Shown here: positions 1 to 38,575 of the stretch, one piece after another | Layout: every line of letters starts with the position of its first letter | Numbering within the stretch: position 1 is the first letter of the stretch | Assembly: GCA_020403045.1 (NCBI GenBank) | Contig: JADBYK010000037.1 | Location: forward strand, 1-38,575 | DNA length: 38,575 nucleotides | Direction: 5' to 3' | Origin: Cytophagales bacterium | GTDB taxonomy: Bacteria > Bacteroidota > Bacteroidia > Cytophagales > Cyclobacteriaceae | Position numbers and translations under genes: made by a program | The notes under the pieces: generated by a model | Told to the model about the DNA's origin: nothing | Seen by the model: the letters and a program-made list of their open reading frames with translations, nothing else | The model's database searches: none

Positions 1-209
1 TAGTTTGCCCAGGGGGTTGACGATCCGCCTGAGGCGGATGTCAAGGTTAAACCTCGTGACGCTTGCGGTCAGAGTCAGACATTTATCGTCTGACCTGAAA
101 ATGAAAATCACCAACTTGGTTTTCTTCCTTGGGGCTAAATCGTTGATTTTCATTCGTCAATTATGCAATGCTGACAGTACCGTCAGCATTGCATAATCTG
201 GGTTCAAAG
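1..209 (+). repeat. Dispersed multi-hairpin repeat, copy 1 (left end cut by window)
   Basis: Near-identical to 20349-20551 and, inverted, to 38416-38575. It holds several small hairpins: ATCCGCC/GGCGGAT near 24-40, GTCAGAC/GTCTGAC near 76-96, and a right-end stem at 161-196 with 15-bp perfect arms (TTATGCAATGCTGAC and its complement). The outer right end reads TCTGGGTTCAAA. A 63-codon frame runs through it, but the differences between copies almost all change the amino acid, so it is probably not a gene. The window begins inside the element, so the left-end hairpin seen in copy 2 is missing here. Mobile non-autonomous element or structured-RNA repeat are both possible. Confidence 0.85.
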
Positions 210-429
210 CAAAACAATTCTATCGAAAAGGGTTTCATCGCTGCAACAAGGAGTAACCATTTCTAAGCTCAAAGCAGCAGAACTAGTGTTGACAGGGTTC
301 CACGCACTCCTCCAATATTTGAACCCAGATCATGCATTAAGAATTAAATTTTGACTCATTAAGCTGACGGATCCCTCCTTGCGGCAGGATTTCAAAAAGT
401 CAGGCCAATTTCAAACAACAATTTTTAGT
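210..429. other. Intergenic stretch without a recognisable gene
   Basis: No credible reading frame or tRNA-like fold was seen between the end of repeat copy 1 and the terminator at 431-460. The only structure found is the solo repeat end at 318-347, which makes an inverted pair with the right end of copy 1 around a 108-bp segment (210-317). Confidence 0.5.
318..347 (+). repeat. Solo left-end fragment of the dispersed repeat
   Basis: The sequence TTTGAACCCAGATCATGCAT, continuing to 347, is the reverse complement (one change) of the right outer end of copy 1 at 190-208. It also resembles the left outer end of copy 2 (AACCCAAACTATGCATTAGG at 20322-20341). No internal element sequence follows, so this looks like a remnant end. 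Confidence 0.55.
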
Positions 430-430
430 A

Positions 431-9097: not shown

Positions 9098-11724
9098 ACT
9101 TGTACTAATTTAATGGCTTTTTCAATAACTCTATCTAATCCGCTAATATCTTTCCCTCCGGCCGTAGCAAAAAAAGGTTGCCCTCCCCCACCGCCATCAA
9201 TTCCCCTGGCCAGTTCTTTTACCATATTTCCAGCATGATACTTTTTTGTTGCCTCCAATTTTTCACCGATCATCACAGCCACCTGTGGTTTGCCTTCCAT
9301 GTCAGCCGCGAGTATCATCAACAGATCATCAAATTGATTGCGCAATGCATAGGCGATATTTTTTAAGGCATCTGCATTGGGCACACTCACTCGCTCCAAA
9401 ACCAGCGTACAACCATTGGATTTTACTGCTTTAGCTGCAAGTATGTCTTTCAGCGTATTGGCTTGTTGCTGGTAAATGATTTCCAGCTTTTTTTCAAGGC
9501 CATGTTTTTCGTCTACCAGCGCTTGAATAGACGCAACGACATCTTTCGGGTTTTTGAGTTGTGCTTTGATCTGCCCCATCTCATTATAAAAGCCGTTCAG
9601 GTATTCAAATGCCCCATCTGCCGTAACCGCTTCAATTCTGCGAACACCGGCAGCTACCGAACTCTCGGAAACAATTTTTAGCAATCCGATATTTCCTGTG
9701 GCCTTCACATGAGTACCTCCACAAAGCTCAACAGAGAATTTCGGGTCAAACGTGATCACCCTAACAAACTCTCCGTATTTCTCACCAAACAATGCCATCG
9801 CGCCCAGCGACTTTGCTTTTTCTATTGGCACATTGCGCTGCTCATTCAACTGAATGTTCTCTCTGATTTTTTCATTGACGATGGTTTCAACTCTCGAAAC
9901 TTCTTCGCTTGTCATGGCAGCAAAGTGAGAGAAATCGAAACGCAATATCTTGTCATTCACCAAAGAACCTTTTTGCTCCACATGCTTTCCTAGTACTTCT
10001 CGCAGGGCAGCATGAAGTAAATGCGTGGCTGAGTGATTAGCCATGGAAAGTCTGCGCTGATGAACATTTACTTTGGCTTGAACTATTCCTTCTAAATTGG
10101 CAGGAAGTCTCTCCACCCAGTGAACGATCAGATCATTCTCTTTCTTGGTATCAACGACCGTAATTTTTTCCAACTCTATTTCTAGAGTTCCAGTATCACC
10201 CACCTGCCCTCCACTTTCTGCATAGAAAGGAGTTTTATCCAGTACCAACTGAAATAACTCTTTGTTCTTTTGTTTTACTTTTCGGTAGCGTAAAATTTTT
10301 GAAGTGGAAGTCAATTCATCGTAGCCAATAAATTCTGGTTTGCCTGCCTGACCGGCAGGCAGGTCGCCTTCCAACACCACCACCCAGTCTCCGGTTTCTT
10401 TGGCTGCATCGGCTTTCGAACGTGTTTTTTGTTTGGCCATTTCTTCAATGAACCCTTTTTCATCCACCAAAAAACCACGTTCTCGCGCAATGAGAGAAGT
10501 TAAATCAAACGGAAAGCCGAAGGTATCATACAGTTCAAAAGCTTGCTCTCCAGAAATTGTCTTGTCAAAATTCTCAATCCGCTTCAAACCTTTTTCCAGT
10601 GTTCTCAAAAAAGAAATCTCTTCTTCATGCACAACCTTACTCACATACTCTAGTTGTTGGTGTAACTCCGGAAACACATCTTTCAACTGCAAAGCAAGCA
10701 AAGGCACCAAGCGATGGATGAATGGCTCTTTAAAATTCAAATAAGAAAATCCATAGCGCACTGCTCTCCTCAAAATTCTTCTGATCACATAGCCCGCGCC
10801 CGTGTTACTCGGCAACTGCCCATCGGAAATCGCAAAGGATACAGCACGAATATGATCGGCCATTACCCGGATCGCAATATCGGTTTTTATATTGTCTCCA
10901 TATTTTACATTGGCATTGATCGCTATGAAATCCATCAACGGGCTAAATACATCTGTATCGTAGTTAGATGTTTTTGCCTGAATGGCCATGCAAAGTCGCT
11001 CGAAGCCCATTCCGGTATCTACATGTTTATCTGGCAAAGGCACCAATGCACCGGAAGCAAGTCTGTTAAACTGGATGAACACCAAATTCCAAATCTCCAC
11101 GACTTGCGGATGATCGCTATTGACTAAATCACGACCAGCTTTTAGCATTCTTTCTTCCTCTGAACGCAGGTCAATATGAATTTCTGAGCACGGCCCACAT
11201 GGACCACTTTCGCCCATCTCCCAAAAATTGTCCTTTTTATTACCGTGAAGAATGCGATCCTCTTGTACGAAAGTGCGCCAAAGGTCTTTGGCTTCTTCGT
11301 CCACCTGCAGGTTATCGCCTTTATCGCCACCAAAAACTGTTACATATAATCTGTCTTTGGGCAATTCATATACTCCTGTCAATAGCTCCCATGCCCAACT
11401 GATTGCCTCTTTTTTAAAGTAATCACCGAAGCTCCAATTGCCAAGCATTTCGAACATAGTGTGGTGGTAGGTGTCCAGCCCCACGTCTTCCAGGTCGTTG
11501 TGCTTACCGCTTACCCTAAGGCACTTTTGTGTGTCGGCTACACGTCTGTTAGTCGAAATTGAATTGCCCAAAAAGTAGTCCTTGAACTGCACCATGCCCG
11601 AGTTGGTAAACAGCAGCGAAGGGTCATTTTTAAGCACTAAAGGGGCAGAAGGGACGATTTTATGGCCTTTACTTTCAAAGAAATCGAGGAATTTTTGGCG
11701 GACGATGGCCGATGTCATATGCAT
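9094..11724 (-). CDS. alaS: Alanyl-tRNA synthetase
   Basis: 876 residues. The class II catalytic part (1-~400) carries 'FTNSGMVQFKDYFLG', 'DTYHHTMFEMLGNWSFGDYF' and 'GYVIRRILRRAVRYG'. The editing domain has both zinc motifs, HSATH (about 563-567) and CGGTH (about 667-671). The C-Ala domain ends with the glycine stretch 'GGGGGQPFFATAGG'. It charges tRNA-Ala and hydrolyses mischarged Ser/Gly. An oddity is an extra 'LPAGQAG' near residues 454-461, encoded by a palindromic repeat. The start could be ATG 11724 or 11718 two codons later. It is the first gene of the alaS-antitoxin-toxin-gatB run and is divergent from the M23 genes. Confidence 0.97.
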   Translation of the reverse strand: MHMTSAIVRQKFLDFFESKGHKIVPSAPLVLKNDPSLLFTNSGMVQFKDYFLGNSISTNRRVADTQKCLRVSGKHNDLEDVGLDTYHHTMFEMLGNWSFGDYFKKEAISWAWELLTGVYELPKDRLYVTVFGGDKGDNLQVDEEAKDLWRTFVQEDRILHGNKKDNFWEMGESGPCGPCSEIHIDLRSEEERMLKAGRDLVNSDHPQVVEIWNLVFIQFNRLASGALVPLPDKHVDTGMGFERLCMAIQAKTSNYDTDVFSPLMDFIAINANVKYGDNIKTDIAIRVMADHIRAVSFAISDGQLPSNTGAGYVIRRILRRAVRYGFSYLNFKEPFIHRLVPLLALQLKDVFPELHQQLEYVSKVVHEEEISFLRTLEKGLKRIENFDKTISGEQAFELYDTFGFPFDLTSLIARERGFLVDEKGFIEEMAKQKTRSKADAAKETGDWVVVLEGDLPAGQAGKPEFIGYDELTSTSKILRYRKVKQKNKELFQLVLDKTPFYAESGGQVGDTGTLEIELEKITVVDTKKENDLIVHWVERLPANLEGIVQAKVNVHQRRLSMANHSATHLLHAALREVLGKHVEQKGSLVNDKILRFDFSHFAAMTSEEVSRVETIVNEKIRENIQLNEQRNVPIEKAKSLGAMALFGEKYGEFVRVITFDPKFSVELCGGTHVKATGNIGLLKIVSESSVAAGVRRIEAVTADGAFEYLNGFYNEMGQIKAQLKNPKDVVASIQALVDEKHGLEKKLEIIYQQQANTLKDILAAKAVKSNGCTLVLERVSVPNADALKNIAYALRNQFDDLLMILAADMEGKPQVAVMIGEKLEATKKYHAGNMVKELARGIDGGGGGQPFFATAGGKDISGLDRVIEKAIKLVQV
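10343..10363. repeat. Short palindromic repeat inserted in frame in alaS
   Basis: Arms CCTGCCTG and CAGGCAGG around ACCGG make a 21-base palindrome. On the coding strand it adds 'LPAGQAG' between two otherwise ordinary AlaS segments, at a linker between catalytic and editing domains. Similar in-frame 'LPAGQAG' peptides are, from memory, seen in unrelated Bacteroidota proteins, which points to a mobile palindrome. Confidence 0.6.
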
Positions 11725-12818: not shown

Positions 12819-13774
12819 TGACGAAGGTAAAGTATACATATAATCCAGTTACCTGTAAATACGAGCCAATTATCGTATGCCCTCGCTTGTTAGGAAAGGC
12901 TACGCTACGCTTTCTAGCCGTTTCGTTTGTTATTGGCCTTGCCGGAAGCATTTATTTCCATTTTCAGTATCCCTATTTGGACGAGACGCTGCAAAGCCAC
13001 GAGAATGCCTATCTGAAAGCAGAGTGGAGACTACTCGAAAAACGTTTAAACAACAGTTCGCAGCAACTGAGCGCACTGGAAAAAAACGATGACCAAAATT
13101 TCCGTGTGATACTTGATCTGGATCCTTTGTCACCGTCCCAACGCGAAGCTGGTGTCGGTGGTCGTCCAAAAGAGAGCGAAACGATCACTTACCCGCTAAT
13201 CAAATTAGCGTATGATAAGGCGGCAAAAATCAAAAACCGGCTAGACATACAGCGCCAGTCCATTGATCAGCTAAAAACAGAACTTGGAAAAAAAGAGCGT
13301 ATGTGGGCATCGCGGCCGGCCATTCAGCCAATTAATAACAAAGATCTAAAGCAACTTCACACCATTTTTGGTATGCGGATGCATCCGATTCTAGGGTATG
13401 TTCGCCCTCACAACGGACTTGATTTTACCGCACCGCATGGATCACCAGTGTACGCAACCGGTGACGCGGTCGTTATGTATACCGGATTCTCAACTTATGG
13501 AAATGTAATTTATTTAGATCATGGCTTTGGTTTTGAAACCAGATACGCCCATTTGACCCGCTATATAGTGGAACCCGGGCAAGTCATTAAAAGAGGCCAG
13601 ATCATCGGATACGTAGGTAATACCGGTTTATCAGCAGCACCACATCTTCACTATGAAGTGCATTATAAGAATGTGGCCATCAACCCGATCAATTTCTTTC
13701 AGCGCGATCTCAGCAACAAGGAATATGAAAAACTGATTGAGTTGGGAAGTAAGTCAACTACGTCACTCGATTAA
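12818..13774 (+). CDS. M23 (LytM-type) peptidoglycan endopeptidase, second of a pair
   Basis: 318 residues with the same plan as the gene before it: a short N terminus with the shared 'YNPVTCKYEP' motif, a membrane segment at about 28-50, a coiled coil with many Lys/Gln/Leu (60-95 and 130-165), and a C-terminal LytM domain. Ligands are H-N-G-L-D near 198-202 and H-L-H near 276-278, preceded by 'GMRMHPILGYVRPH'. It is predicted active. The two proteins are clearly paralogous but only moderately similar, so the duplication is old; their coupled translation suggests a heteromeric or sequential role in wall remodelling, which is inference. Confidence 0.92.
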   Translation: MTKVKYTYNPVTCKYEPIIVCPRLLGKATLRFLAVSFVIGLAGSIYFHFQYPYLDETLQSHENAYLKAEWRLLEKRLNNSSQQLSALEKNDDQNFRVILDLDPLSPSQREAGVGGRPKESETITYPLIKLAYDKAAKIKNRLDIQRQSIDQLKTELGKKERMWASRPAIQPINNKDLKQLHTIFGMRMHPILGYVRPHNGLDFTAPHGSPVYATGDAVVMYTGFSTYGNVIYLDHGFGFETRYAHLTRYIVEPGQVIKRGQIIGYVGNTGLSAAPHLHYEVHYKNVAINPINFFQRDLSNKEYEKLIELGSKSTTSLD

Positions 13775-20316: not shown

Positions 20317-20554
20317 TTTTAAACCCAAACTATGCATTAGGAATGCATAGTTTGCCCAGGGGGTTGACGATCCGCCTGAGGCGGATGTCAAGGTTAAACA
20401 TCGTGACGCTTTCGGTCAGAGTCAGACATTTATCGTCTGACCTGACAATGAAAATCACCAACTTGGTTTTCTTAACTGGGGCTAAATCGTTGATTTTCAT
20501 TCGTCAATTATGCAATGCTGACAGTACCGTCAGCATTGCATAATTGGGTTAAAA
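20317..20554 (+). repeat. Dispersed multi-hairpin repeat, copy 2 (complete)
   Basis: The only full copy, 238 bp. Outer ends are imperfect inverted repeats: TTTTAAACCCAAACTATGC on the left and, complemented, TTTTAACCCAATTATGC on the right. The left hairpin AAACTATGCATT-AGG-AATGCATAGTTT spans 20327-20353; the right hairpin with 15-bp arms spans 20508-20543. Between them are ATCCGCC/GGCGGAT, GTCAGAC/GTCTGAC and smaller stems. No clear target-site duplication was seen. It lies between the TerB-like and sugar-kinase-like genes, 28 bases from the latter's stop, in a 304-base gene-free gap. Confidence 0.85.
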
Positions 20555-38415: not shown

Positions 38416-38575
38416 ATAAACCCAGATTATGCAATAGAAATTCTATTGCATAATTGACGAATGAAAATCAACGATTTAGCCCCAAGTAAGAAAACCAAGT
38501 TGGTGATTTTAATTGTCAGGTCAGACGATAAATGTCTGACTCTGACCGCAAGCGTCACGAGGGTTAACCTTGACA
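38416..38575 (-). repeat. Dispersed multi-hairpin repeat, copy 3 (inverted, cut by window)
   Basis: On the minus strand the order is the same as in copies 1 and 2, ending at the window edge within the region matching 20384-20390. The right-end hairpin (38427-38453) has arms TTATGCAATAGAA and its complement around one base: the outer 9 bp are as in copies 1 and 2, but the inner bases are different and still paired. The outer end reads ATAAACCCAGATTATGC. Confidence 0.85.

What the first reader, a model, noticed from the sequence alone, without database searches (positions are those of the whole stretch)
20317..20554. A ~238-bp multi-hairpin repeat family in three copies, bounding the window
Copies at 1-209, 20317-20554 and 38416-38575 (inverted) are near identical. 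The full copy has imperfect inverted ends (TTTTAAACCCA.. / ..TGGGTTAAAA), one hairpin at each end and three or more internal stems, and no transposase gene. This fits a non-autonomous mobile element or a dispersed structured RNA. Both window ends falling in the family suggests it breaks assemblies, so copy number is probably high.
Basis: partly seen in the sequence, partly recalled or inferred. Interest (0 to 1): 0.8.

Follow-up and report, generated by a model that had tools for sequence, protein, structure and literature searches.

The report
Hairpin-cassette mini-transposon paired with IS1380
A 226-base piece of DNA without a recognisable gene sits at about 75 places in this bacterium's genome, is predicted to fold into five hairpins some of which come in alternative versions, and is likely moved by a single jumping-gene enzyme encoded elsewhere in the same genome.

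Summary
The repeat is real and abundant. The element runs from CCCA to TGGG (226 bp in the main form); the TTAAA outside it is a 5-bp target duplication. The genome holds 75 left and 76 right ends of this family. 24 of 31 complete copies have equal 5-bp duplications, shuffled mean 6.1, of type WTNAW, and two relatives lack the element at the site of the window copy. A single intact IS1380-family transposase gene lies between the same terminal repeats, and two IS1380 copies of a relative duplicate WTNAW 5-mers. So it is a MITE, most likely trans-mobilised by IS1380. The unusual part is the interior: five predicted hairpins, some with whole-stem alternatives between fixed feet, one shared with other MITE families of the genome. 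Across the genus the helices show paired changes (62 cells against 26 in shuffles), yet G-T and A-C cells are equal (50:49) and orientation to genes is unbiased (40:39), which speaks for palindromic DNA rather than a one-strand RNA. At two of four comparable orthologous sites the hairpin set differs. Known kind, new variant. Mobilisation, cassette exchange and any role of the hairpins are inferred.

The parts
20324..20548 (+). Complete MITE copy (225 bp here, one base short of the 226-bp family length)
   Evidence: CCCA...TGGG boundaries
20319..20323 (.). Left target duplication TTAAA
20549..20553 (.). Right target duplication TTAAA
20326..20354 (+). H1: left terminal repeat extended into a 13-bp-stem hairpin
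   Evidence: helix 1
20364..20391 (+). H2: hairpin with alternatives (type a here, ATCCGCC/GGCGGAT at 20370-20386) between feet TTGACG and GTCAA
   Evidence: types a 54, b 14, c 6, unclear 1 of 75 left ends; helix 2
20421..20441 (+). H3: optional hairpin, absent from the 176-183-bp forms
20443..20506 (+). H4: TGACAATGAAAATCA ... TGATTTTCATTCGTCA hairpin, with H5 the part used for the genus-wide model
20507..20544 (+). H5: right terminal repeat extended into a 16-bp-stem palindrome (long type)
   Evidence: long 53, short 23 of the 76 classed right ends; helix 4
1..202 (+). Copy 1, cut by the contig start; TTCAA follows at 203-207
38421..38575 (-). Copy 3, cut by the contig end; short H5; ATAAA outside at 38416-38420. 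A full 176-bp form with TTTAT/TTTAT duplication and the same right flank is seen in G043 (L213)
324..430 (+). Decayed relative with the same kind of terminal repeat and a GACG hairpin; right end not recognisable, end coordinate approximate

Best explanation
The repeat is a MITE (a transposon without a transposase) that occurs at about 75 places in this genome and is likely moved in trans by the genome's single intact IS1380-family transposase. Shown: inverted ends CCCARAYTATGCAWT, a main form of 226 bp, 5-bp WTNAW target duplications, absence from one site in two relatives, and an IS1380 element in the same genome with the same ends. Inferred: that this transposase binds those ends and moves the element. 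Inside, five palindromic hairpins are joined by short fixed feet (TTGACG...GTCAA, TGAC...GTCA) and by TTAAACCC-like joints that look like an element boundary. Whole hairpins occur as alternatives (H2 types a, b, c; H3 present or absent; H5 long or short), and one hairpin sequence recurs in other MITE families. The likely mechanism is recombination or template switching between copies at those fixed feet, which replaces hairpins while keeping the ends. The palindromes show no preferred strand, so their likely role is at DNA level (paired end sites for the transposase, or mere template-switch correction) rather than as a defined RNA.
For: Copies and ends. Duplications: 24 of 31 complete copies equal at all five bases, shuffled mean 6.1 and maximum 14 in 20,000 (L001 boundary set by hand, L006 added by hand, L008 and L021 dropped for cut flanks). 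Target: T at -4 and A at -2 in 151 of 151 classed ends. Site without element: G010 and G043. Transposase: PF13701, NF033539 267 bits over a cut-off of 180, ends CCCAGATTATGCA and CCCAGATTATTCA. Two IS1380 copies of G041: 19 of 20 terminal bases alike, duplications TTAAA and ATGAA. Hairpin alternatives. Genus-wide pairing: 90.2% of cells paired against 30-42% when slid; 62 cells with two-sided change against 26.0 (sd 4.7) in shuffles, 0 of 500. Fewer changes in stems: 22 distinct in 118 sites against 42 in 108 (p 0.006). No strand preference: G-T 50, A-C 49 cells; genes whose 3' end faces H1 40, H5 39. Exchange: L007 against L032, same site, duplication and orientation, different H3 and H5; L066+L160 against L215, same site and duplication, inverted and different module set; L132 mosaic of two families; hairpin TACTGACGGTACCGTCAGTA at 37 places, in several MITE families.
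Against: The IS1380 copy of this genome has unequal flanks (TTTAA and ATAAA) and a changed base in one end; of 11 transposase loci examined, the script found equal duplications in 2 (some are cut or fragmentary, and L226 looks equal, TTTAT, by eye). IS1380 and MITE are poorly correlated in the genus: IS1380 in 10 of 62 genomes, MITE model in 17 of 62, both in 4; G032 has 48 MITE matches and no IS1380 match, G041 and G033 have 26 and 28 IS1380 matches and no MITE match. 7 of 31 complete copies have unequal duplications, and only 1 of the 4 tiny 39-48-bp copies has an equal one. In the relatives without the element the five target bases themselves differ from TTAAA. In one search two measures are weak: 14 pairs with two-sided change (51 of 500 shuffles reach it; the +1 slide gives 15) and 50 further pair types (29 of 500); the structure was drawn from the same sequences, which favours it in the slid control. 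Some relative contigs are 98-100% identical to ours while others of the same bins are 66-88%, so they may be mis-binned, and chimeric assembly through repeats is possible.
Confidence: 0.85

Rival explanations
1. The element is a structured non-coding RNA family that happens to be dispersed; the hairpins are kept because the transcript works as an RNA.
For: Very stable predicted fold, paired changes across the genus, stems change less than the rest.
Against: G-T equals A-C (50:49 cells; 30 against 25 distinct events), where an RNA on one strand should favour G-T; orientation 40:39; no Rfam family at threshold; target duplications and a site without the element show insertion.
Confidence: 0.07
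2. An ordinary IS1380 MITE whose hairpins are only by-products: imperfect palindromes of the IS end made perfect by replication template switching, with no exchange of cassettes and no role.
For: The IS end itself is a near-palindrome, GCATTAGAAAATTCTAATGGTTGAC, resembling H5; template switching would give paired changes without strand preference.
Against: It does not explain why the same hairpin sequence stands in different families nor the absence or presence of H3 at one site.
Confidence: 0.3
3. A REP or REPIN type repeat moved by a Y1 tyrosine transposase (RAYT).
For: Palindromic, intergenic, high copy; hairpins carry GACG/CGTC at the foot; four Y1 matches in the genome, three over the cut-off.
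Against: 5-bp target duplications, which Y1 enzymes do not make (recalled); the three Y1 loci examined carry none of the hairpins next to the gene, L274 holding only an element about 1.2 kb away at the contig end (a crude GTAG pattern hit once in each locus and was not followed); ends match IS1380.
Confidence: 0.03

Closest known systems
RUP (Streptococcus pneumoniae, IS630-Spn1)
   Same: Short (107 bp), non-coding, 108 intergenic copies, ends matching an IS (passages of PMC2229807)
   Different: IS630 ends and TA target; no interchangeable hairpins described in the passages seen
MITECca01 (Cardinium, IS982)
   Same: About 240 bp, 169 copies, inverted repeats that the figure legend calls palindromic, parent IS in the genome (passages of PMC9769881); Cardinium is of the same phylum (recalled)
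   Different: IS982 ends; the words hairpin and secondary structure do not occur in the text
Correia/NEMIS (Neisseria)
   Same: MITE with a form carrying a 50-bp internal sequence and a form without it, like H3 here (passages of PMC2229807)
   Different: Other ends; in the passages seen, forms with and without an insert rather than a set of alternative hairpins
CGTC-tagged REPs
   Same: CGTC stands directly 5' of H5; palindromes; found also in Bacteroidetes; authors state that they lack a dedicated transposase (PMC3733652: abstract, passages, section 6)
   Different: Those are 20-40-bp units with 8-9-bp stems and mostly a CCA tail; H5 has a longer stem and sits inside a MITE
IS1380 family (for example IS1247, 5-bp direct repeats in Table 2 of PMC3281130, passage seen)
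   Same: 5-bp duplications, terminal repeats of similar length, transposase family of the resident IS
   Different: The repeat here has no transposase and has palindromic ends

Membership tests
Bacterial MITE | Short element without transposase | tested here: met
   226 bp in the main form, longest ORF inside the window copy 66 aa without Pfam match
Bacterial MITE | Terminal inverted repeats | tested here: met
   CCCAAACTATGCATT / CCCAGATTATGCAAT
Bacterial MITE | Target-site duplication | tested here: met
   24 of 31 equal at 5 bases against 6.1 in shuffles
Bacterial MITE | Polymorphic insertion (sites without the element) | tested here: met
   one site tested in 10 relatives; two with both flanks aligned lack the element, target bases differ
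Mobilised by IS1380 | Resident IS1380 transposase with matching ends | tested here: met
Mobilised by IS1380 | Same target type as IS1380 of the genus | tested here: met
   two G041 copies TTAAA and ATGAA; the resident copy has unequal flanks
Mobilised by IS1380 | IS1380 and MITE occur together across the genus | tested here: inconclusive
   10 and 17 of 62 genomes, both in 4
Mobilised by IS1380 | Transposase acts on the MITE | not testable with these tools
   needs an assay
CGTC-tagged REP | CGTC next to a hairpin | tested here: met
   CGTC-AATTATGCA at H5
CGTC-tagged REP | 8-9-bp stem, 20-40-bp unit, CCA tail | tested here: not met
   H5 stem 12-16 bp, tail CTGGG or TTGGG
RAYT/REPIN | Repeats flank the Y1 gene | tested here: not met
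   three of four Y1 loci looked at, none flanked
Known structured RNA | Rfam match at threshold | tested here: not met
   0 in the window

The most novel reading that the evidence does not exclude
A cassette-exchange mobile element: MITEs of one genus are assembled from a shared stock of DNA hairpins that are swapped whole, in place, at fixed GACG/CGTC feet and at internal joints (TTAAACCC) that mimic the target-plus-end boundary, while one IS1380-type transposase moves the finished element. This would also give palindromes with CGTC at the foot, which are stated to lack a dedicated transposase, a vehicle for spreading.
Probability: 0.35. Interest if true: 0.75.

Novelty: new variant of a known kind. 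Interest (0 to 1): 0.55.

Why it matters
Bacterial MITEs are usually seen as shrunken IS copies with a passive interior (my own summary of the field). Here the interior is an ordered set of palindromes with alternatives, kept as palindromes across a genus without a strand preference. That makes it a natural case to test whether transposons profit from DNA hairpins (for example as doubled transposase sites), how palindromes are replaced whole, and how short palindromic repeats without a known transposase spread. It also explains why this assembly breaks: 79 of 151 family ends lie at contig ends.

Tried and rejected
Structured RNA of a known family: no Rfam match at threshold; five sub-threshold hits, to three microRNA precursors, ALIL and Xist, taken as chance for hairpin-rich DNA.

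One-strand RNA function: rejected on the G-T to A-C test and the orientation count. RNA made from either strand is not excluded by these tests.

Transcription terminator: no terminator-like site found. Four promoter-like sites (0.7 expected) lie in or at the edge of the AT-rich left flank; the scan does not cover promoters of this phylum (recalled), and they were not followed.

Y1/RAYT mobilisation: Y1 genes exist, but the three loci examined are not flanked by the hairpins.

Plasmid or phage spread: no match in either collection.

Correlation of IS1380 with MITE across the genus: looked for and weak, reported as evidence against.

Organism name: not obtained; the genome collection scan named only relatives carrying the transposase, such as Flammeovirgaceae MAGs.

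Print record: searches with IS1380 and MITE terms list no paper whose seen passages describe an IS1380-derived MITE. Passages were read in PMC3281130, PMC11578231 (its MITE is tied to IS1182) and PMC3542288; the main text of the review PMC10969869 holds no occurrence of IS1380. The other listed papers were seen only as listing and start of abstract, and the library lacks most subscription journals.

Full report
What is there. The window is the complete contig C56 of a 4.02-Mb genome in 124 contigs. The whole-genome search scored 40 of 158 candidates and lists 40 matches of 170 bp or more. The terminal repeat CCCARAYTATGCA occurs 209 times at up to one mismatch against 5 for the reversed pattern, and exactly 83 and 75 times in its two forms against none. 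After fetching the sites not yet held and removing duplicates, 75 left ends and 76 right ends of the main family remained, so there are about 75 copies. Ten further right-like ends were not classed; they include both IS1380 ends, cut pieces and older families. Of the 151 classed ends 79 run off the contig within 170 bp, which confirms that the element breaks the assembly.

Boundaries and insertion. One search paired left and right ends in 42 cases: 26 span 226 or 227 bp, 6 span 176-224 bp, 4 span 39-48 bp, and 6 are other families or chance pairings. The fetch favoured the 226-bp form, because many of the loci came from a search with it. Outside lie 5-bp duplications: 21 of 25 of the 226/227-bp copies and 3 of 6 of the 176-224-bp forms are equal at all five bases, together 24 of 31 against a shuffled mean of 6.1 and a maximum of 14 in 20,000. 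In that table the boundary of L001 was set by hand because its right end lacks one base, L006 was added by hand, and L008 and L021 were dropped because a flank is cut. The target reads W T N A W; T at -4 and A at -2 hold in all 151 classed ends. The site of the window copy was searched in 10 relatives. In G010 and G043 both flanks align and the element with one duplication is missing; the five target bases differ from TTAAA there. The other relatives did not align on both sides closely enough to judge. Only this one site was tested.

Parent. The genome has one match to PF13701, a 437-aa protein that NCBIfam calls IS1380 family (267 bits, cut-off 180). It lies between CCCAGATTATGCATTAG and CCCAGATTATTCATTCG, the ends of the MITE. 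In G041 the two IS1380 copies examined (of 26 matches) share 19 of 20 terminal bases between their ends and duplicate TTAAA and ATGAA, the target type of the MITE; in the other 9 of the 11 loci examined the script found no equal duplication, though some are cut or fragmentary and L226 looks equal by eye. That the enzyme moves the MITE is inferred. Against it: the resident IS has unequal flanks, and presence across the genus is weakly linked (IS1380 10 of 62; MITE model 17 of 62; both in G000, G035, G043 and G099). G032 has 48 MITE matches without an IS1380 match. Such genomes may have lost their IS; that is a guess.

Inside. The element is predicted to fold into five hairpins. H1 and H5 are the terminal repeats continued into their own reverse complements. 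H2 stands between TTGACG and GTCAA and comes in three unrelated stems: type a 54, b 14, c 6, one unclear, of 75 left ends; H3 is present or absent; H5 is long in 53 and short in 23 of the 76 classed right ends. Complete palindromic units of 48 bp (three) and 39 bp (one) also occur, one of the four with equal duplications. A second family of about 145 bp with end CCCAAATTTTGCAGTAG was found. The hairpin TACTGACGGTACCGTCAGTA is at 37 places at up to two mismatches, control none, many of them H2 type b of the main family. The 15 stretches read show it in several MITE families and, in L260 and L269, apparently alone. L132 joins the left part of the 145-bp family to the right end of the main family.

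Relatives. 27 of 32 extracted elements without H3 (near-duplicates left out; two of the 27 rows are from the own genome) were tested against a 54-pair structure: 90.2% of cells pair against 30-42% when slid, and 62 cells with two-sided change stand against 26.0 (sd 4.7) in shuffles, 0 of 500. Two measures are weaker: 14 pairs with two-sided change (51 of 500 shuffles reach it, and the +1 slide gives 15) and 50 further pair types (29 of 500). The structure was derived from these sequences, so the slid control leans towards it. A model of H4-H5 matches 17 of 62 genus genomes (at most 65 candidates per genome were scored, and the own genome reached that limit) and, in an even sample of the order, 2 of 118, the own genome and one of another genus of the family.

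DNA or RNA. In the genus alignment the stem cells that are not Watson-Crick are G-T 50, A-C 49, other 83; as distinct events 30 G-T and 25 A-C. A one-strand RNA should favour G-T. Among nearest ORFs whose 3' end faces the element, 40 face H1 and 39 face H5; with 5' ends the counts are 21 and 29; 24 ends had an ORF reaching the element and 8 a short flank, of 161 (the H5 side there includes the ten unclassed ends). The ORFs come from a simple script. Stems carry fewer changes than the rest in 25 own copies (22 distinct in 118 sites, 42 in 108; p 0.006, and 0.016 without the terminal 15 bp). So the stems are kept, but not on a preferred strand. Selection on DNA palindromes and template-switch correction both fit.

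Exchange in place. Of eight relative elements whose flanks were compared, four matched own element sites on both sides; the other four matched none of the own stretches held. At L007 against L032 flanks are 97.5-98.3% identical over about 1.6 kb a side, duplication and orientation are the same, but H3 and H5 differ. At L066 plus L160 against L215 flanks are 96.6 and 92.6% identical, the duplication is the same, but the own copy is inverted and of another module set. The other two, L213 and L033, show equal duplications (TTTAT, TTCAA), while the own copy in C100 pairs the left flank of one with the right flank of the other. This is either recombination between copies or a chimeric contig, and it shows one way in which unequal duplications arise. 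The very high identity of some of these contigs may mean mis-binned neighbours rather than true relatives.

Mechanism. I hold MITE mobilised by IS1380 at 0.85. For the interior I think exchange between copies at fixed feet is most likely, helped by internal TTAAACCC joints that look like target plus element end; this is inference. Nothing here shows a benefit for the host.

Known work. Bacterial MITEs with a parent IS are well known (PMC2229807, PMC10969869 and PMC9769881, passages seen). CGTC-tagged repeats are described as lacking a dedicated transposase (PMC3733652: abstract, passages and section 6); the elements here are not members by stem length and tail. Searches showed no IS1380-derived MITE in the passages I read. 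What is new is a variant, not a new kind.

Noticed in passing
window 324-430: Decayed relative of the element beside copy 1, with a terminal repeat and a GACG hairpin.
   Followed up: partly
window 10336-10365: In-frame palindrome CCTGCCTGACCGGCAGGCAGG inside the alanyl-tRNA synthetase-like ORF (peptide LPAGQAG; gene name by recall).
   Followed up: no
window 13124-13174: Odd insert-like peptide SPSQREAGVGGR in an ORF that looks like a peptidase M23 (by recall).
   Followed up: no
L262, L264, L265, L270, L079: A second MITE family of about 145 bp with end CCCAAATTTTGCAGTAG and the same target type (3 of 6 listed rows with equal duplications; one of the six rows is the mosaic L132).
   Followed up: partly
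L260 285-304 and L269 268-287: The hairpin TACTGACGGTACCGTCAGTA (or a near form) apparently alone, outside any recognised element.
   Followed up: partly
G041 and G033 (loci L224, L226, L233): IS1380 in 26 and 28 matches (some of them fragments) without any match to the MITE model in the same genome.
   Followed up: partly
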